A DNA stretch of 64,000 bases. Origin: Planctomycetota bacterium. GTDB lineage: Bacteria > Planctomycetota > Phycisphaerae > Phycisphaerales > SM1A02. The translations under genes and the position numbers were made by a program. Below the pieces are notes generated by a model, which was given only the letters and a program-made list of their open reading frames with translations, searched no databases and was not told where the DNA came from. Positions 34,108 to 59,850 of this stretch are shown here, one piece after another (the stretch's first letter is position 1; every line of letters begins with the position of its first letter). Where the stretch lies: contig JAIOPG010000008.1 of the NCBI GenBank assembly GCA_021414025.1, positions 124,001 through 188,000 of the forward strand, given 5' to 3'.

Positions 34108-34181
<74 letters not shown>

Positions 34182-49080: not shown

Positions 49081-50976
49081 ATGATGAGCTTCCTTAGGCC
49101 CCCCCTCTTCGCTCGCCTTCTGACCAAATTGATCATGGTTGCGTTCATTGCGTTCTCGCCCGTAGCGGTCGGACAGTCGGTGTCTGCATGGGGCTACACG
49201 GGGTACTCCAACATTGACAATCTCTCGTCGCTCACGTGGGTGGCTGGTGGGTATACCCACACCATCGCGCTCAGATCGAACGGCACCGTTGGATGCTGGG
49301 GGGACAACACCTACGGCCAATGCAATGTGCCCGCAAACTTGAGCACCGTCACGCAGGTGGCCGGAGGCTTTGCCCATACGGTCGCGCTCAAAGCAGACGG
49401 CACGGTGGCGTGCTGGGGGGACAACGCACAGGGCCAGTGCAATGTGCCCGCTGACTTGGGCACCGTCACGCAAGTGGCCTGTGGCAAGTACCACACCATT
49501 GCGATCAAGTTGGACGGCACGGTCGTGGCATGGGGGCGCAACCTTTACTTGCAGTGCAACGCCCCCGCGGGCTTGGGGACGGTCGTTCAGATCGCCGGAG
49601 GAAGCAACCACACAATCTCAGTCAGTTCAAACGGAACGGTCGCGTGCTGGGGGTTCAACTTTTATGGCCAGTGCAACATACCAGCCGATTTGGGCACAGC
49701 CACTCAAGTTGCCGCAGGGGAAGCGCACAGCATCGCGCTCAAATCGGACGGAACCGTTGCGTGCTGGGGGGACAACTCAAAGGGTCAATGCAATGTGCCT
49801 GCAGACCTGGGCACCGTCACGCAAGTGGCCGCAGGCGACTATCACAACGTCGCTCTCAAATCGAACGGTTCCGTCGTATGTTGGGGTCGCAACACTTCCG
49901 GCCAATGCAATGTGCCCGCTGGCTTGGGGAGTGTCATTCAAGTCGTTGGAGGTGGTTCCCACACCACGGCGCTCAAATCGAATGGAGTCTCCCAAAGTTG
50001 GGGGGCAAACAGCGTCGGTCAGTCCGATGTCCCCGCAGACTTGGGCACAGTCGCTCAAGTGGACGGGGGCTCGACCCACACCGTCGCGATCAAAGCAAAC
50101 GGCGCTGTCACGTGCTGGGGATACAACAACTATGGCCAGTGCAATGTGCCGGCAAACCTGGGCACCGTCACGCAGGTGGCTGCAGGTGATAATCACAACA
50201 TCGCTCTCAAATCCGATGGGACTGTGGCATGCTGGGGGCGCAACGATTATGGCCAGTGCAATGTGCCGGCAAACCTGGGCACCGTCACGCAGGTGGACGG
50301 AGGTTCGTTACACACAATCGCGCTGACATCGGACGGCACGGTGGCGTGCTGGGGGGACAACTCGCAGGGCCAGTGCAATGTGCCCGCAAACCTGGGCGGC
50401 GTCACGCAAGTGGCCGGGGGTTCTTCCCACACCATTGCACTCAAATCAAACGGCTCCGTGGTGTGCTGGGGTCGCAATGTCGACGGCCAGTGCAATGTGC
50501 CCGCAAATCTGGGCACGGCCGCGCAGGTGGCCGCAGGCGGTTCACACACCATGGTTCTCCAAACCGATGGCACCGTCGTGTGCTGGGGATACCAAGGCTC
50601 GGGACAGTGCATTGTGCCGGCAAACATAGGCACCGTCACGCAGGTGGCCGCGGGAAATAGCTACACGATGGCGCTTCGAGACAATGGAACTGTCGTTGTC
50701 TGGGGAAGCAACCTGTATAGCCAATGCGATATCCCCGCAGACTTGGGATCTGTCTCTCACATCGTTGGTGGGGTGAATCACGTCATCACACTCAAATTTA
50801 CAGCTCAATGCCCTACCGATCTGGATGGCTCGGGCGAAGTGGATGGCGGCGATCTCGGGCTCGTGCTGCTTGACTTCGGTCCCTGCGACGGATGCCCGAC
50901 CGACCTCGATGGCTCAGGCGAAGTGGACGGCGGCGATCTTGGACTCGTGCTGCTTGACTTCGGTCCGTGCCCGTAA
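49081..50976 (+). CDS. Secreted RCC1-like propeller protein with dockerin-like tail
   Basis: 631 residues. Signal peptide (LLTKLIMVAFIAFSPVAVGQ), one leading partial unit, then 13 consecutive 39-residue units of the form WGxNxxGQCNVPAxLGTVTQ followed by VAAGxxHTxALKSDGTVxC, and at the end a tandem DLDGSGEVDGGDLGL module. The HTxALxxDG motif is the RCC1 blade hallmark, but canonical blades are about 50 residues. With the leading unit there are 14 blades, enough for two seven-bladed propellers. Such proteins bind other proteins or polymers; the target is unknown. Codon use keeps the DNA repeats very similar. Confidence 0.85.
   Translation: MMSFLRPPLFARLLTKLIMVAFIAFSPVAVGQSVSAWGYTGYSNIDNLSSLTWVAGGYTHTIALRSNGTVGCWGDNTYGQCNVPANLSTVTQVAGGFAHTVALKADGTVACWGDNAQGQCNVPADLGTVTQVACGKYHTIAIKLDGTVVAWGRNLYLQCNAPAGLGTVVQIAGGSNHTISVSSNGTVACWGFNFYGQCNIPADLGTATQVAAGEAHSIALKSDGTVACWGDNSKGQCNVPADLGTVTQVAAGDYHNVALKSNGSVVCWGRNTSGQCNVPAGLGSVIQVVGGGSHTTALKSNGVSQSWGANSVGQSDVPADLGTVAQVDGGSTHTVAIKANGAVTCWGYNNYGQCNVPANLGTVTQVAAGDNHNIALKSDGTVACWGRNDYGQCNVPANLGTVTQVDGGSLHTIALTSDGTVACWGDNSQGQCNVPANLGGVTQVAGGSSHTIALKSNGSVVCWGRNVDGQCNVPANLGTAAQVAAGGSHTMVLQTDGTVVCWGYQGSGQCIVPANIGTVTQVAAGNSYTMALRDNGTVVVWGSNLYSQCDIPADLGSVSHIVGGVNHVITLKFTAQCPTDLDGSGEVDGGDLGLVLLDFGPCDGCPTDLDGSGEVDGGDLGLVLLDFGPCP
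49297..50817 (+). repeat. 13 tandem 117-bp coding repeats
   Basis: Each unit starts at a tgg Trp codon. The Trp codons at 49297, 49999 and 50701 fall exactly on a 117-base grid, as do all the units between them, so there are no insertions or deletions. Copies share long stretches such as gccagtgcaatgtgcccgc, which implies recent expansion or homogenisation. Confidence 0.9.
50818..50973 (+). other. Dockerin-like module, copy in the RCC1-like protein
   Basis: Two near-identical units, DLDGSGEVDGGDLGLVLLDF twice, separated by GPCDGCPT and ending GPCP. The two DNA copies are almost the same, so this duplication is recent. It matches the ends of the proteins at 45292 and 53192. Confidence 0.85.
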
Positions 50977-54050: not shown

Positions 54051-55160
54051 CTATTGTTGCGGGGCGACCAAATCCGCGGCCTTCACGCAGCGGAATCCGA
54101 CATGGTTGCTGGCGGTGCGCACCTCGCCCTTGCCGCGCGTTCCGACCATGTAACGGGTGCAATACTGGTCAGTGCAGAGGAAGGAGCCGCCGCGATGCAC
54201 ACGCTTCTTCTCGCCGGGCTCCGCCGGGTCGTATGGCGTCTCGGGTCCCCTCGGATTGCGTGGCACTCCGCCGGCCAGCTTCAACCGGGCATAGGTGTCC
54301 GCGCGGTACCAGTCGCTGCACCACTCCCACACATTGCCCGCGACATCGAAGAGGCCATAGGCGTTGGGTGGATATTGACCGACCGGCGCGATGCCCTTGA
54401 AGCCATCCTCGCCGGTGTCGCCATCCTTCACGGGGAAAGTGCCCTGGTAAATGTTGGCGACGAACTTGCCGCCGGGCTTGAGCTCGTCGCCCCACGCATA
54501 GAGCTTGCCCGCCGCGCCGCCGCGGGCCGCGAACTCCCACTCCGCCTCCGTGGGCAGCCGCTTGCCCGCCCACTTCGCGTAGGCCTCCGCGTCTTCGTAG
54601 GCCACCTGCACCACGGGATATTTTTCGCGCCCCTTGATGTCGCTGTTCGCCCCCGTGGGATGGCGCCAGTCCGCGCCGGGGACATAGCTCCACCACTGGA
54701 AATAATCGTTCAGAGGTACGGGCTTCGGCGTGGGCGTAAAGACCGTGGAACCCGCGACGAGATTCTCGGGCGGCGCCGTGGGAAACTCCTCCTTGGTCGG
54801 CTTCTGCTCGGCCACGGTGACGTAGCCGGTGGCCTTGACGAATTGCTCGAACTGCTCGTTGGTCACCTCAGTCGCGTCCATCCAGAAGGCGTCGGCGTAG
54901 ACGCGGTGCACGGGCAGCGAGTCGAGCGTGGTGCCCGGAAGGCAGCAGACCGATTCGCTTTTTGCGTCGCTGCCCATGGAGAATTCGCCGCCCGGAATCC
55001 ACACCATGCCCTTGGGAGCCGGTGATGGCGCAGCGATCTTGCTTGGAATAGTTGCCTCGAAAGGCGAAGCCGGCGCGGGCACGGATTGATCGGCAGAGCC
55101 CGCGAGCCCGAGCACGCCGGCACATGCGGCGGCGAGTACAACCAAACTTCGAATCCTCAT
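54051..55160 (-). CDS. Formylglycine-generating enzyme (sulfatase maturase)
   Basis: 369 residues with a signal peptide (LVVLAAACAGVLGLAGSA). The domain is the SUMF1/FGE type: GMVWIPGGEFSMGSDAKSES, DATEVTNEQFEQFVKATGY, YPVVQVAYEDAEAYAKWAGK, RLPTEAEWEFAARGG, NVWEWCSDWY. The active-site cysteines are Cys329 and Cys334 in GGSFLCTDQYCTRY, with the spacing of true copper FGE; many paralogs lack them. It should oxidise the Cys of sulfatases. It lies in the same run as the sulfatase at 57700, with DUF4105 and hydrolase genes between. Confidence 0.92.
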   Translation of the reverse strand: MRIRSLVVLAAACAGVLGLAGSADQSVPAPASPFEATIPSKIAAPSPAPKGMVWIPGGEFSMGSDAKSESVCCLPGTTLDSLPVHRVYADAFWMDATEVTNEQFEQFVKATGYVTVAEQKPTKEEFPTAPPENLVAGSTVFTPTPKPVPLNDYFQWWSYVPGADWRHPTGANSDIKGREKYPVVQVAYEDAEAYAKWAGKRLPTEAEWEFAARGGAAGKLYAWGDELKPGGKFVANIYQGTFPVKDGDTGEDGFKGIAPVGQYPPNAYGLFDVAGNVWEWCSDWYRADTYARLKLAGGVPRNPRGPETPYDPAEPGEKKRVHRGGSFLCTDQYCTRYMVGTRGKGEVRTASNHVGFRCVKAADLVAPQQ

Positions 55161-55169
55161 GCGAGCATC

Positions 55170-56252
55170 CTAGTTGGGTTGAACGGCGGTGGGCATTGGC
55201 AGGCCCTCGCGGATGCGCAGCGAAAAATTCGGATCCTGATCGGCCTTGTTCGCCGCATCGTTGACATGGCTCCTCGCCACGAGTTCCTCGTACGGCAGGC
55301 TGGTGTCGATCCGGTGATTGGCGTACATCTGCTCGGCCGCGTAGCCGCTGAACAATATCTTCCAGCTCATGTGCGCGGGTAGATTGACCGACTTCGCGTT
55401 CTCAAGGACGTTGGTGGCGCAATTGCTCGTCGCGGCATTGTAGAACTGCGGTTCCCGCGCCAGCTGGTTGGCGTGCTCCAAGTATCCGAGCAGAAGCTCC
55501 CTCGCCTGTTCCGGTGTGAAGGTCGAGCGGTACAGATAGACATCCTCATGGCGATAATTGGTGCGGAGCCGGATGACGTCGCGCTCGTCGGAGAAGATGT
55601 AGACCAGCTCGAACTGCCGGAAGAAGCCCTGGACGGTGGAATAGGACTCGGATTGCTGCATGCGGGCCTCGATGGAGACGGCCAGATACTGGTCCCCGTC
55701 AAATCCGAAGCTGACCATGGCGTGCGCGATTGCCGGCGAGCCCCAGTACACCAGCATGGCATCGACCGTGCGCAGCTTGGAGAGGTCGTAGGTGCGGGTT
55801 TCCCAGCGCGGCGCGAAATCCGTCTCCGTCTTGTAGTCGAAGTTGCGGACATTGTGGATGGTCACCCGATCGCCGACGATTTCCGCGGAAGGAAGGGAGG
55901 CGGTCTCCGGCCTCCAATCCCGGTTGTTGGAGGGCGTCCGCGAGAAGAACCAGAGCACCGCCATGGCGAACATGGCGAAGCAGGCGAGGGCGCCGTAGCG
56001 GCGCGGCCGGATGAAAATCACGCAGGCGAGGGCCGCCGCGGCATAGACCCCCGCCGGAATCGCCCGGGGACTTCCACCGGCCAGATCGGTGTAGTAGACG
56101 GCGAGCACAGCCCATCCCGTGGTGCCCAGAAGGAGCATCGCCAGAAAAAAATATCCGACCGCCCTTGCAAGGGACCTCGTGCGGCGGATTTTCGGGGGCT
56201 GGGACGCGCCAGGCGAGTCGTTGACGGAATGAAGCGGTGAGGTTGAAGTCAT
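55170..56252 (-). CDS. DUF4105 membrane protein
   Basis: 360 residues. Two to four transmembrane helices at the N-terminus (AVGYFFLAMLLLGTTGWAVL, VYAAAALACVIFI, ALACFAMFAMAVLWFF), then a large outer domain with VTIHNVRNFDYKTETDFAPR, HAMVSFGFDGDQYLAVSIEA and YNAATSNCATNVLENAKSVN. The conserved Asn-Cys in SNCATNV, with His residues, resembles an NlpC/P60-type active site that DUF4105 is thought to share. It is 9 bases upstream of FGE and 37 bases after the hydrolase. Function unknown. Confidence 0.85.
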   Translation of the reverse strand: MTSTSPLHSVNDSPGASQPPKIRRTRSLARAVGYFFLAMLLLGTTGWAVLAVYYTDLAGGSPRAIPAGVYAAAALACVIFIRPRRYGALACFAMFAMAVLWFFSRTPSNNRDWRPETASLPSAEIVGDRVTIHNVRNFDYKTETDFAPRWETRTYDLSKLRTVDAMLVYWGSPAIAHAMVSFGFDGDQYLAVSIEARMQQSESYSTVQGFFRQFELVYIFSDERDVIRLRTNYRHEDVYLYRSTFTPEQARELLLGYLEHANQLAREPQFYNAATSNCATNVLENAKSVNLPAHMSWKILFSGYAAEQMYANHRIDTSLPYEELVARSHVNDAANKADQDPNFSLRIREGLPMPTAVQPN

Positions 56253-56289
56253 CGCGTTGAGATATAAACCCGGGATTCAGGCATCGCCA

Positions 56290-57690
56290 TCATTCGGAAT
56301 CCAGCTTCTTGATGATCTCCGGCGGCAGCTGGCCCGGATAGCCGTCCTCGACCATCCAGAACCCGTTCTTGTGCACTTGGAGAGGGCGGCCATATTCCGC
56401 ACCCGGAGGCAGCTGGTAGCGCAAGAAAAGGATCAGGTCGGAGCTGACGGCGGGATTGGAGTGAAAGTAGTCGTGGCCGAAGGCGCCGGTGTTGGAGACG
56501 TGGGCGTCGATGATTTGCGTCGACTTGGAAGTGCGCAACAACTCGAGTTCCTGGGGCGTGAACATGTCAGCCTTGACCTCGCCAAGCCGGCTCAGTCCGC
56601 CGAAGAGCCAGCTCGACAGCCCCAAGGCCCCGTCCTTGGAATTGATGTACATGGCGAAGCGCTCGGGCACCTGTCCCAACCGCACCGTGATGAGTTTTTG
56701 CATGACGATGTCCAGATCAATGTCGGGGGCCGCCAGCACCAGCGTGCCGAGCTTCAGCAGCTCACGGGTGTTCCGTCCGCTGGCGCGGATCTCCATGTAA
56801 AGCTCCCTCAATGCGTTGATGGTCGTGTCCGTTCCACGGCTGTGGCAGATGATGTTGATCTTCTTCACATCCGGGTTCTTGGCGATCTTTAGCAGCATCT
56901 GCTTGAGGTGGAACACCGTGAATTCGCTGGACGCGCTGTCGTAGTTGTAGCCGCGCAGAATGCCCGAGCTGCCGGCGGGCCATGTGTAGGCGATGGGCAC
57001 GCCCTGCCGCCCGAAGAAATGCCAGAGCTGGGCGATAGTCTCCACCCCGTCGTCGAAGGTGTTGTTGTAGCCGTGGATGAAGAGATACACCTCCTTGTGC
57101 GTCGTCTTGGCCAGCTGGGCCGAAAGCTCGGCCTCCATGAAGCCTTCGGCGAGCAGCTCCTCTGCATCAACTTCGTCGCCGAGCATGTTGAAGGCCGCGG
57201 GATCGGCCGTCTGGTTAGGTATTGCGTTCACATCCACGATCTTGACCAGCGATCGCGGCGTGAGCGGGAATCGCACGATCTCGTTTGTATTAACAACCTC
57301 GACCTCCAGATTGACCGATCGATCCCTGGCTCGGCTGGCCTTGTCCAGTTCCTCCCAGGAGATGTTGTGGCCGAACTCGACCTGGCTGACTCCAAAGGCC
57401 ACCGAACGGGAACGTACATATCCGTACTTTCTTCCATTCACTGAATCCGGATCGATTTCCGGAGCGCGGTCGGTGAAATAGAGCACGTCGACCTTGTTGT
57501 TCTGGAACTCCGGCGGCACATTTGGAAAAGGATCGACATCACCGGCCAGATACAGATTGGGCGTGGGCATCAGCTGGATCTTGTTCGAGCATCCAGCCAA
57601 AGCCACCAGCACGAGGACCGCGGCCGTCGCCGGAGCGACGAACCTTGCCGATGAACGGACCTTCAGGGTTTGAAGCGGGGACTCAATCAT
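56290..57690 (-). CDS. Alpha/beta hydrolase lipoprotein (DUF900)
   Basis: 466 residues. Lipoprotein signal with lipobox LVALAGC (Cys34). The hydrolase part has VYLFIHGYNNTFDDGVETIA, GVPIAYTWPAGSS, and the nucleophile elbow IICHSRGTDTTINAL (Cys-His-Ser-Arg-Gly instead of the usual G-x-S-x-G). A late His in SNTGAFGHDYF may complete the triad. Outer- or inner-membrane-anchored esterase/lipase-like enzyme; substrate unknown. Nine bases after the sulfatase, so probably co-transcribed. Confidence 0.82.
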   Translation of the reverse strand: MIESPLQTLKVRSSARFVAPATAAVLVLVALAGCSNKIQLMPTPNLYLAGDVDPFPNVPPEFQNNKVDVLYFTDRAPEIDPDSVNGRKYGYVRSRSVAFGVSQVEFGHNISWEELDKASRARDRSVNLEVEVVNTNEIVRFPLTPRSLVKIVDVNAIPNQTADPAAFNMLGDEVDAEELLAEGFMEAELSAQLAKTTHKEVYLFIHGYNNTFDDGVETIAQLWHFFGRQGVPIAYTWPAGSSGILRGYNYDSASSEFTVFHLKQMLLKIAKNPDVKKINIICHSRGTDTTINALRELYMEIRASGRNTRELLKLGTLVLAAPDIDLDIVMQKLITVRLGQVPERFAMYINSKDGALGLSSWLFGGLSRLGEVKADMFTPQELELLRTSKSTQIIDAHVSNTGAFGHDYFHSNPAVSSDLILFLRYQLPPGAEYGRPLQVHKNGFWMVEDGYPGQLPPEIIKKLDSE

Positions 57691-57699
57691 GCGCCCGCA

Positions 57700-59259
57700 T
57701 CACTTGTCGCCTGAGCCGCGCTGCAAGCTCTCCAGCACGTTGTCGAGGGAGAAGCTGCCGGGCTTCTGGCTCGGTGGGTACTCCTTGAAGGTGGAGAGGA
57801 ACTCGGCGACATACTCCTGCGCCGGCACAAGCACGAAGAGGTGATCCACGCGCCAATGCCAGTAGTCGATGGAGTGGTCGGCCGCCTCGAAGGGGTCGGA
57901 GCGGAGGTTGTAGATCTTGGGAAGCCGCAACGTGGCGTACGCCTCCTGCCAACCCGCCGCGCCTTCGGCGCGCTGCTCCTGGAAGACGATCTTGTATTGG
58001 TTCACGCGCAGGGCCGTCAGGTTGCCCTCGTCGCCGAAGTAGAAGAACTCGTGGCGCGGGCTGGGCGCCTTGCCGGCCAGCGCGTCGGTGAGGTTGTAGC
58101 CGTCGAGATGCACCTTGAAGGTCGCGTCGCCGATCTTCACGCCCTTGAGCAGCCGCTCCTTGACATCGGGCGCCCCGGCCGCGGCCAGCAGCGTGGGCAG
58201 CATGTCCTCGTGGGAGAAGATGTCGTTGAGGACGGTGCCGGGCTTGATGACTCCGGGCCAGCGGATCATGCAGGGCACTCGGTAGCCGCCTTCCCACTGG
58301 GTCCCCTTCTCGCCGTGAAACGGCGACTGGCCGCCGTCGGGCCAGGTCATCTTCTCGGCGCCGTTGTCGGTGGAGTACATGACGATGGTGTTGTCCTCCA
58401 GGCCGAGCTGCTTGAGCTTGTCCAGCAGCTGGCCGACCATCGAGTCATGCTCGACCATGCCGTCGGGATAGACGCCCAGACCGGTCTTCCCCTTCCATTC
58501 CGGGCCGAGGTGCGTCCAGATGTGCATGCGCGTCGAGTTCCACCAGACGAAGAAGGGCTTGTCGGATTTTGCCGCCTTCTCCAGATAGTCCAGCGTCGCC
58601 TTGGTGATCTCGGCGTCGATCGTCTCCATGCGCTTCTTGCCCAGCGGGCCGGTGCTCTCGATGCGCTGCGTGCCGTCGGGATTGGCCCAGCAGTGGAGCA
58701 CGCCGCGGGTCGCGTACTTCGTGATCAGAGCCGGATCCTTGAAGTAGTCGGGGTTCTCGAACTCCTCCTCGGCGTTCAGGTGGTAGAGCGAGCCGAAAAA
58801 CTCGTCGAATCCGTGGGCGGTGGGAAGAGTCGAGTCGGCGTCGCCGACATGGTTCTTGCCGAACTGCGCCGTCTGGTAGCCCTGCGCCTTGAGCAGCTGG
58901 GCGATGGTCACGTCGCGGGCCTGCAGTCCCTCCTTCGCGCCGGGCAGGCCGACCTTGAGCAGGCCGGTGCGGAAGCCGCACTGGCCGGTGATGAAGGCGG
59001 CGCGGCCCGCGGTGCAGCTCTGCTGGCCATACCAGTCGGTGAAGAGCGCGCCCTCCTTGGCGATGCGGTCGATGTTGGGGGTCTTGTAGCCCATCATGCC
59101 CTGGTTGTAGGCGCTGACATTCCAGTAGCCGATGTCGTCGCCCCAGATGATGAGGATGTTGGGCTTCTTGTCCGCGGCATGGGCCGGCGCGGTGAAGCCG
59201 ATGATGGCGGCGCATGCGGTCAGAAGCGCAAATCCGAACGAGAGCAGATTGGTTTTCAT
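57700..59259 (-). CDS. Secreted arylsulfatase-type sulfatase
   Basis: 519 residues with signal peptide (LLSFGFALLTACAAIIGFTA). Family S1 sulfatase motifs: NILIIWGDDIGYWN (metal Asp pair), QQSCTAGRAAFITGQ with Cys82-x-Ala-x-Arg86, the formylglycine site, then GKNHVGD, FVWWNSTRMHIWTH, MYSTDNGAEK and EGGYRVPCMIRW. It hydrolyses a sulfate ester; specificity unknown. It needs FGE-type maturation, and a secreted FGE with both active cysteines is encoded in the same strand run at 54051. ATG 59259 starts the signal peptide. Confidence 0.93.
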   Translation of the reverse strand: MKTNLLSFGFALLTACAAIIGFTAPAHAADKKPNILIIWGDDIGYWNVSAYNQGMMGYKTPNIDRIAKEGALFTDWYGQQSCTAGRAAFITGQCGFRTGLLKVGLPGAKEGLQARDVTIAQLLKAQGYQTAQFGKNHVGDADSTLPTAHGFDEFFGSLYHLNAEEEFENPDYFKDPALITKYATRGVLHCWANPDGTQRIESTGPLGKKRMETIDAEITKATLDYLEKAAKSDKPFFVWWNSTRMHIWTHLGPEWKGKTGLGVYPDGMVEHDSMVGQLLDKLKQLGLEDNTIVMYSTDNGAEKMTWPDGGQSPFHGEKGTQWEGGYRVPCMIRWPGVIKPGTVLNDIFSHEDMLPTLLAAAGAPDVKERLLKGVKIGDATFKVHLDGYNLTDALAGKAPSPRHEFFYFGDEGNLTALRVNQYKIVFQEQRAEGAAGWQEAYATLRLPKIYNLRSDPFEAADHSIDYWHWRVDHLFVLVPAQEYVAEFLSTFKEYPPSQKPGSFSLDNVLESLQRGSGDK

Positions 59260-59319: not shown

Positions 59320-59850
59320 CTAGCGCCCGCCCGATCCGGCTGCCGACTCCTCCGCCAGAGGCATCTCCGAGGCGATCACGAGATCAATGACGGTATTGGT
59401 CCGGTGCTCGATTTGCAGGAACTGCGCCGCGTGGATCGGAGACACCTCTGCGGCGAGGCGCGTGTAGGTGCTCTGCATCAGGTCGACCTCGTCGCGCTGC
59501 AGCTTGAGCCAGTCTTTGGCAATCGCGTCAGCGGTGGCGTTGTCCACCTTTCCAGTGTCGATGGCGGTCAGGTAGCGCTTGATCAGCGCGATGCGTCGAT
59601 CGCCCAGCACGAAGAGATCCGCCTCGTATTCGGCGTAGATCGGCCAGAACTTGGCGGCCTCCTCCGGGGTGAGGCGCATCACCTGGTTGATGATGTGGGC
59701 CTTGCCGGTGCTGAGCTCCGAGCGGACGCGGGCGACGTAGGCCGCCACTGCGGGATCTTGCTGGGCGGGATCCTTCGCAGGCGTTGAGGCGCAGCCGCAC
59801 AGGAGGATCATGGCGAGAGGACCCGCGAAACGCGTAATTCGATGAGACAT
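59320..59850 (-). CDS. Small helical lipoprotein, Spy/CpxP-like
   Basis: 176 residues. Lipobox AMILLCGC, then a Pro/Ala spacer and a helical domain: LTPEEAAKFWPIYAEYEADL (the LTxEQ-like pattern), GDRRIALIKRYLTAIDTGKV and AKDWLKLQRDEVDLMQSTYT. The arrangement resembles periplasmic Spy/CpxP proteins, but the family is not certain. A good AAAGGAAA lies before the ATG. Sixty bases separate it from the downstream sulfatase gene. Confidence 0.7.
   Translation of the reverse strand: MSHRITRFAGPLAMILLCGCASTPAKDPAQQDPAVAAYVARVRSELSTGKAHIINQVMRLTPEEAAKFWPIYAEYEADLFVLGDRRIALIKRYLTAIDTGKVDNATADAIAKDWLKLQRDEVDLMQSTYTRLAAEVSPIHAAQFLQIEHRTNTVIDLVIASEMPLAEESAAGSGGR

What the first reader, a model, noticed from the sequence alone, without database searches (positions are those of the whole stretch)
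54051..59259. Sulfatase and its maturase in one four-gene unit with a hydrolase and DUF4105
Gaps are 9, 37 and 9 bases. The sulfatase has the Cys82-x-Ala-x-Arg motif and the FGE has both active cysteines. Both have signal peptides, so maturation may happen outside the cytoplasm, which would be unusual because bacterial FGEs usually act in the cytoplasm. The hydrolase and DUF4105 proteins may belong to the same sulfated-polymer pathway.
Basis: partly seen in the sequence, partly recalled or inferred. Interest (0 to 1): 0.6.

Follow-up and report, generated by a model that had tools for sequence, protein, structure and literature searches.

The report
Exported activator enzyme beside its sulfatase
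A bacterium appears to switch on its secreted sulfatases outside the cytoplasm with an exported copper enzyme, much as animal cells do in the endoplasmic reticulum, and relatives of this exported enzyme turn up in several bacterial phyla.

Summary
[quoted passage not shown] Sulfatase and FGE have export signals by hydropathy and reading; no signal-peptide program was available.

Comparison favours maturation outside the cytoplasm. The genome (97.5% complete) has two sulfatases, both Cys-type and exported; one FGE with the catalytic pair, exported; and no anSME match. On a tree of 101 two-Cys FGEs the export label needs 3 changes (shuffled mean 26). Exported FGEs occur in named Planctomycetota, Verrucomicrobiota, Bacteroidota, cyanobacteria and Burkholderiales. 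In 24 hand-curated loci with an exported FGE the linked sulfatase is exported; one mixed locus was left out. Two related genomes fuse sulfatase and FGE. Only two independent contrasts exist, so the pairing is not statistically independent evidence.

The four-gene unit is not conserved: hydrolase and Lnb_N gene recur as their own pair. Nine paper searches found no exported catalytic bacterial FGE; one paper states that prokaryotic FGE is cytosolic. New variant of a known enzyme; localization and activity untested.

The parts
57700..59259 (-). S1 sulfatase, 519 aa, Sec-type signal peptide, Cys-type signature CTAGR at Cys82
   Evidence: Pfam Sulfatase 173.5 bits (cut-off 25); best solved-structure match 7aj0 arylsulfatase, E 1.7e-60
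59176..59259 (-). predicted signal peptide of the sulfatase (residues 1-28, ending AHA-AD)
   Evidence: reading of the sequence; hydropathy classifier 2.64
59014..59016 (-). codon of Cys82, the residue to become formylglycine
   Evidence: sequence
56290..57690 (-). DUF900 alpha/beta hydrolase with lipoprotein signal (LAGC), 466 aa; partner of the Lnb_N gene in other genomes
55170..56252 (-). membrane protein with Lnb_N (DUF4105) domain, 360 aa
   Evidence: single-sequence structure model unusable (pLDDT 45)
54051..55160 (-). exported formylglycine-generating enzyme, 369 aa
   Evidence: model matches T. curvata FGE at Z 38.9 and human FGE at Z 38.5
55095..55160 (-). predicted export signal of the FGE (residues 1-22; type I or lipoprotein not resolved)
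   Evidence: reading of the sequence; classifier 2.86; export label conserved on the FGE tree
54174..54176 (-). FGE catalytic Cys329 codon
   Evidence: invariant in alignments A1 and A2
54159..54161 (-). FGE catalytic Cys334 codon
   Evidence: invariant in alignments A1 and A2
59320..59850 (-). small lipoprotein 60 bases upstream on the same strand; possible fifth member of the unit
   Evidence: lipobox LLCGC by reading; no Pfam family

Best explanation
The FGE is exported and works outside the cytoplasm. Sulfatase and FGE each cross the inner membrane by the Sec route; the FGE folds there, binds copper through Cys329 and Cys334, and with oxygen oxidises Cys82 of the still unfolded sulfatase to formylglycine. 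This puts the reaction on the same side of the membrane as the animal enzyme in the ER lumen. Shown: gene content, catalytic cysteines, FGE fold of the model, no match to the other known maturase in the genome, conservation of the export label on the FGE tree, linkage and fusion in relatives. Inferred: actual export, copper loading outside the cytoplasm, activity on Cys82 and also on the genome's second sulfatase. The DUF900 lipoprotein and the Lnb_N membrane protein are probably a separate envelope module lying inside the unit.
For: Own genome (97.5% complete): 2 sulfatases, both Cys-type with exported N-termini; 5 FGE-domain proteins, of which only the window's has the canonical Cys pair, and the other four also read as exported (by reading); anSME 0 matches. 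Classifier on 95 two-Cys FGE loci: 60 exported or lipoprotein, 32 cytoplasmic, 3 open. Tree of 101: 3 changes of the label, shuffled mean 26.2, 0 of 500 as low. Hand-curated linked pairs in 34 rows: 24 exported/exported, 7 cytoplasmic/cytoplasmic, 3 cytoplasmic FGE with exported sulfatase, 0 exported FGE with cytoplasmic sulfatase (L041 left out). CTAGR type: exported with exported in window, L051, L053, L073, L081, L084, L181, L185, L187, L202, L206, L217; cytoplasmic with cytoplasmic in L086 and L103. Fusions in L052 (917 aa frame, clear signal) and L054 (814 aa, weak signal), no internal stop. In 13 genomes whose only strong FGE is exported or fused and which have no anSME match, the 37 Cys-type sulfatase ORFs parsed all read as carrying a signal; Tat-like or no signal in 1 of 37 there against 10 of 30 in nine genomes with a cytoplasmic route (Fisher p 0.0016). 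anSME over cut-off in 0 of 21 named genomes with FGE.
Against: No localization or activity data. Export calls come from a home-made hydropathy rule plus reading. L041 has a cytoplasmic sulfatase 42 bases from an exported FGE, beside two exported ones; that genome has an anSME. Only 2 phylogenetically independent contrasts, sign test not significant. The 10 of 30 come from three genomes only (G038, G041, G045); the other six of the nine show none, and nothing is corrected for kinship. Cytoplasmic FGEs also sit beside exported sulfatases (3 rows), so export of the substrate does not need an exported FGE. In the window's phylum only 7 of 50 stretches around the sulfatase type held a two-Cys FGE. 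One of the 13 genomes (G017) has an in-frame TGA in its FGE.
Confidence: 0.77

Rival explanations
1. The sulfatase is matured in the cytoplasm during translation by an FGE that has not yet been exported, or by an unknown maturase, and the exported FGE has a minor or different role.
For: Prokaryotic FGE is described as cytosolic (PMC4505483, passages); cytoplasmic FGEs do occur beside exported sulfatases (L063, L093, L121), one of them with a twin-arginine signal (L093).
Against: No cytoplasmic two-Cys FGE and no anSME match in the genome; export label conserved across phyla; fusions place both domains behind one signal.
Confidence: 0.12
2. The exported protein keeps the FGE fold and cysteines but modifies other envelope proteins or small molecules, as other exported FGE-fold proteins do.
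For: FGE-fold proteins with other roles exist (PorK Z 28.7, PvdO Z 27.5; periplasmic OCTIN, PMC5915273 passages); GldK and PvdO models are hit below cut-off.
Against: Closest solved structures are true FGEs (Z 38-39); both Cys invariant in the alignments; recurrent linkage and fusion to Cys-type sulfatases.
Confidence: 0.08
3. All four genes form one dedicated pathway for a sulfated polymer.
For: Tight spacing; G011 also has DUF900 and Lnb_N genes next to an FGE and a sulfatase (L059).
Against: In G004, G021, G009 and G035 DUF900 and Lnb_N lie together without FGE or sulfatase in the short flanks held; sulfatase-FGE loci elsewhere lack the pair. No carbohydrate-active gene was sought.
Confidence: 0.1

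Closest known systems
Copper-dependent FGE of Streptomyces coelicolor and Thermomonospora curvata
   Same: fold, both catalytic cysteines, about 50% identity over the aligned core
   Different: described as cytosolic (for prokaryotic FGE in general, PMC4505483 passages; for T. curvata recalled); this one has an export signal and lies in another part of the tree than the cytoplasmic CC-motif group
Human FGE (SUMF1)
   Same: fold (Z 38.5, 267 residues, rmsd 1.5), signal peptide, predicted action on newly translocated sulfatase
   Different: ER of eukaryotes with an ER-retention extension (PMC4505483 passages); bacterial envelope here; evolutionary link not tested
anSME (radical SAM sulfatase maturase, TIGR03942)
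   Same: same product, formylglycine
   Different: unrelated enzyme, cytoplasmic by recall; no match in this genome
PvdO, PorK/GldK, OCTIN
   Same: bacterial FGE-fold proteins, exported (OCTIN by passages read, the others by recall and entry titles)
   Different: other roles; OCTIN lacks the catalytic cysteines (PMC5915273 passages)
Arylsulfatase 7aj0 and other S1 sulfatases
   Same: domain and Cys signature in the alignment
   Different: Ala in place of Pro in C-x-P-x-R; substrate unknown

Membership tests
Formylglycine-generating enzyme | PF03781 domain over cut-off | tested here: met
   266.5 bits, cut-off 23.3
Formylglycine-generating enzyme | catalytic cysteine pair in GGS[FY]LCxxxYC | tested here: met
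   C329, C334; invariant in A1 (19 rows) and A2 (25 rows)
Formylglycine-generating enzyme | fold closer to true FGEs than to other FGE-fold proteins | tested here: met
   Z 38-39 for FGEs, 33.5 for the human paralogue, under 32 for the others listed; model pLDDT 81
Formylglycine-generating enzyme | a Cys-type sulfatase substrate in the genome | tested here: met
   two: CTAGR and CSPTR
Formylglycine-generating enzyme | copper binding and Cys to formylglycine activity | not testable with these tools
   needs biochemistry
Cytosolic bacterial FGE | no export signal | tested here: not met
   N-terminal hydrophobic signal; among exported enzymes on the tree
S1 formylglycine sulfatase | PF00884 and Cys signature C-x-[PA]-x-R | tested here: met
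   173.5 bits; CTAGR. That Ala is accepted at the Pro position is recalled
PvdO, GldK, EgtB equivalogs | NCBIfam equivalog cut-off | tested here: not met
   GldK 144.9 of 350, EgtB 88.6 of 360, PvdO 72.5 of 500
anSME | TIGR03942 gene in the genome | tested here: not met
   0 matches at E 0.001
Lnb_N (DUF4105) protein | PF13387 over cut-off | tested here: met
   149.9 bits, cut-off 22.2
DUF900 hydrolase | PF05990 over cut-off | tested here: met
   165.3 bits, cut-off 20.5

The most novel reading that the evidence does not exclude
Many bacteria mature Sec-exported sulfatases outside the cytoplasm with an exported, often lipid- or membrane-anchored copper FGE, a bacterial counterpart of the ER system. 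[quoted passage not shown]
Probability: 0.5. Interest if true: 0.75.

Novelty: new variant of a known kind. Interest (0 to 1): 0.58.

Why it matters
Where bacterial secreted sulfatases are activated decides how they can be exported (unfolded by Sec or folded by Tat), how copper reaches the maturase, and how to make them in hosts such as E. coli. The paper seen on this point states that prokaryotic FGE is cytosolic; if exported FGEs are common in sulfatase-rich bacteria, that statement needs revision, and the ER would no longer be the only known place where FGE works beyond a membrane. It is directly testable by localization and mass spectrometry.

Tried and rejected
Chance hydrophobic N-terminus: shuffles were only moderately rare, so the argument was moved to conservation. 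In-frame stops in relatives' FGEs looked like recoding; the TAGs of G005, G015, G012, G002 and G008 are the terminal stop; the TGA of G017 and the broken copy in G014 remain. L075 looked like a C-terminal fusion, but a stop lies in its match. L078 and other long frames are open frames without evidence of fusion. Other FGE-domain proteins of the genome as maturases: none has the canonical pair; one (L004) has shifted cysteines and reads as exported too. Promoter and terminator scan: chance level. Rfam at gathering thresholds: only a tRNA at 34108-34181. Structure of the Lnb_N protein: model unusable, not searched. Residues fixed over 85% in both exported and cytoplasmic FGEs but different: none. 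AU test does not reject all exported FGEs as one clade (p 0.355). First script counts of sulfatase signals misparsed or doubled some ORFs and were replaced; the ratio's own last line used placeholder numbers and is not used. Papers on sulfatase maturation: searches showed no exported catalytic bacterial FGE in listings and passages seen; search 90 on DUF4105 gave nothing useful. Most subscription papers are not held.
Full report
Observation. The four ORFs, strands and gaps are as reported, and Pfam assigns them to Sulfatase, DUF900, Lnb_N (former DUF4105 by recall) and FGE-sulfatase, each over its cut-off. Cys82 lies in QQSCTAGRAAFITG; the FGE cysteines are C329 and C334. All four proteins read as envelope proteins: Sec signals on sulfatase and FGE, a lipobox LAGC on the DUF900 protein, a hydrophobic N-terminal part on the Lnb_N protein. 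A further lipoprotein gene lies 60 bases upstream.

The maturase. The FGE matches solved FGEs (S. coelicolor E 1.2e-77, T. curvata, human) and is far below the cut-offs of GldK, PvdO and EgtB. Its AlphaFold model (pLDDT 81) aligns with T. curvata FGE at Z 38.9 (279 residues, rmsd 2.0) and human FGE at Z 38.5, against 28.7 for PorK and 27.5 for PvdO.

Closed genome. The genome has 5 FGE-domain proteins, of which only the window's has the canonical Cys pair (by reading), 2 sulfatases, both Cys-type with exported N-termini, and no anSME match. On known chemistry the exported FGE is the only candidate maturase for both; about 2.5% of the genome may be missing.

Export is conserved. A start-independent hydropathy rule was applied to 110 FGE loci: 29 stretches from relatives, the window's own copy, and the 80 best of at least 583 relatives met in a capped scan of named genomes. 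Of 95 with both cysteines, 33 were classed lipoprotein, 27 exported, 32 cytoplasmic and 3 open at the N-terminus. The set leans towards the query. L127, just over the threshold, I read as cytoplasmic, and the two fusions count as cytoplasmic there because their signal sits before the sulfatase. On a tree of 101 (quick method) the export label needs 3 changes against a shuffled mean of 26.2, 0 of 500 shuffles as low. Apart from one long-branch row (L142), the cytoplasmic enzymes fall in two groups: one with Actinomycetota, Bacillota and others, many with a CC motif, and one with Pseudomonadota, Chloroflexota, Mycobacterium and others. The AU test does not exclude that all exported ones form one clade (p 0.355).

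Linked sulfatases. I curated 34 rows by hand: 24 exported/exported, 7 cytoplasmic/cytoplasmic, 3 cytoplasmic FGE with exported sulfatase, 0 of the reverse. Hand decisions: L088 and one of two L103 sulfatases were classed exported by the rule and read as cytoplasmic; L137 was classed cytoplasmic through a parsing error and read as exported; L094 is cut at the contig end and was judged by likeness to L086. Left out: L041 (one cytoplasmic and two exported sulfatases near an exported FGE, in a genome with an anSME of 356 bits), the two fusions, L090 (open), L102 (sulfatase cut), L118 and L136 (no Cys pair in the FGE match), and the exported/exported loci L040, L045, L046, L080 and L091. The window's own sulfatase type shows both states: exported beside exported FGEs in the window's phylum (not named by the tool; probably Planctomycetota), a cyanobacterium, Cupriavidus and Pandoraea; without a signal beside cytoplasmic FGEs in a Chloroflexi genome and a Mycobacterium. 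Only two independent contrasts exist and the sign test is not significant. Around this sulfatase type in the phylum, 50 of 52 hits are classed exported, and 7 of 50 stretches hold a two-Cys FGE, exported in all 7.

Genome sets. Thirteen genomes (own included) have one strong FGE, exported or, in G022 and G019, fused behind the sulfatase, with no second match over 100 bits and no anSME match. G017's FGE has an in-frame TGA. A clean script parsed 37 Cys-type sulfatase ORFs in them; three were misparsed as cytoplasmic and carry signals, so all 37 read as exported, one with a weak Tat-like motif and one (the L054 fusion) with a weak signal. L289 and L296 were not parsed there but also read as exported (L296 at 1.72 is below the threshold); L238 has an odd signature; L239, L290, L293, L294, L297 and L299 have no readable Cys signature and were not counted. 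As a control, 30 Cys-type ORFs from nine genomes with an anSME-like gene or a cytoplasmic FGE hold 6 Tat-like and 4 without signal (1 of 37 against 10 of 30, Fisher p 0.0016). All 10 come from G038, G041 and G045; the other six genomes show none; only the best-scoring sulfatases of each genome were fetched. Of 20 named genomes, 15 had only exported two-Cys FGEs among the matches fetched, 2 only cytoplasmic, and 3 were mixed or incompletely fetched; an anSME over cut-off was found in 0 of 21, with weaker matches in 13.

Fusions. In G022 and G019 (same family as the window's genome) one frame of 917 and 814 aa holds a sulfatase followed by a two-Cys FGE without internal stop. The L052 protein has a clear signal; that of L054 is weak. 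If such a protein crosses by Sec, its FGE domain can only fold outside.

The unit. The four-gene order was not found in any other locus held. Of 8 other relatives with the Lnb_N protein, DUF900 lies just upstream on the same strand in G011, G004, G021 and G009 and divergently in G035; only G011 also has an FGE and a sulfatase next to them, in another order. The closest FGE homologs examined (L070, L071, L073) have other neighbours, apart from the sulfatase in L073. The window FGE is nearer to genes of Verrucomicrobiales (75%), Pirellula (70%), Flavobacterium (70%) and a cyanobacterium (64%) than to the full-length ones of its own genus (at most 57%), which points to horizontal transfer.

Literature. 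PMC4505483 (passages) says that in prokaryotes FGE resides in the cytosol. PMC5915273 (passages) describes periplasmic OCTIN, an FGE-fold protein without the catalytic cysteines. PMC6388578 (passages) notes multiple FGEs of unclear role in two anaerobic PVC strains. PMC9723792, PMC10154612 and PMC11500405 (passages) do not address the place of FGE in the passages seen. Searches (listings) showed no report of an exported catalytic bacterial FGE; most subscription papers are not held, so this is not proof of absence.

Verdict. The FGE is a genuine family member in an unusual place; the most likely mechanism is maturation of Sec-exported sulfatases outside the cytoplasm. Localization and activity remain to be shown.

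Noticed in passing
L006:1261-3987 (G000 contig 4): The genome's second sulfatase (908 aa, CSPTR) carries what look like two transmembrane helices inside its C-terminal part.
   Followed up: no
L056 (G017), FGE frame codon 31: An in-frame TGA stands where the conserved GMVWIPGG motif has Trp; sequencing error or recoding not resolved.
   Followed up: no
window 59320-59850: Lipoprotein with a stretch LTPEEAAKFWPIYAEYE that recalls Spy/CpxP-like proteins (recalled; no Pfam match), just upstream of the sulfatase.
   Followed up: partly
L004 (G000 contig 5): An FGE-domain protein that reads as exported, with cysteines shifted to GGSWFNCATCC; function unknown.
   Followed up: no
L181 (G259): Homologs of both sulfatase types of the window's genome (74% and 45%) and of its FGE (71%) lie together within about 7 kb.
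   Followed up: partly
L310, L317, L323, L332 (G038, G041): Sulfatases of anSME-bearing relatives carry Tat-like signals (RRxFL type), which would fit cytoplasmic maturation before folded export.
   Followed up: partly
window 49081-50976: Large secreted protein of RCC1-like repeats ending in two dockerin-like repeats (recalled names).
   Followed up: no
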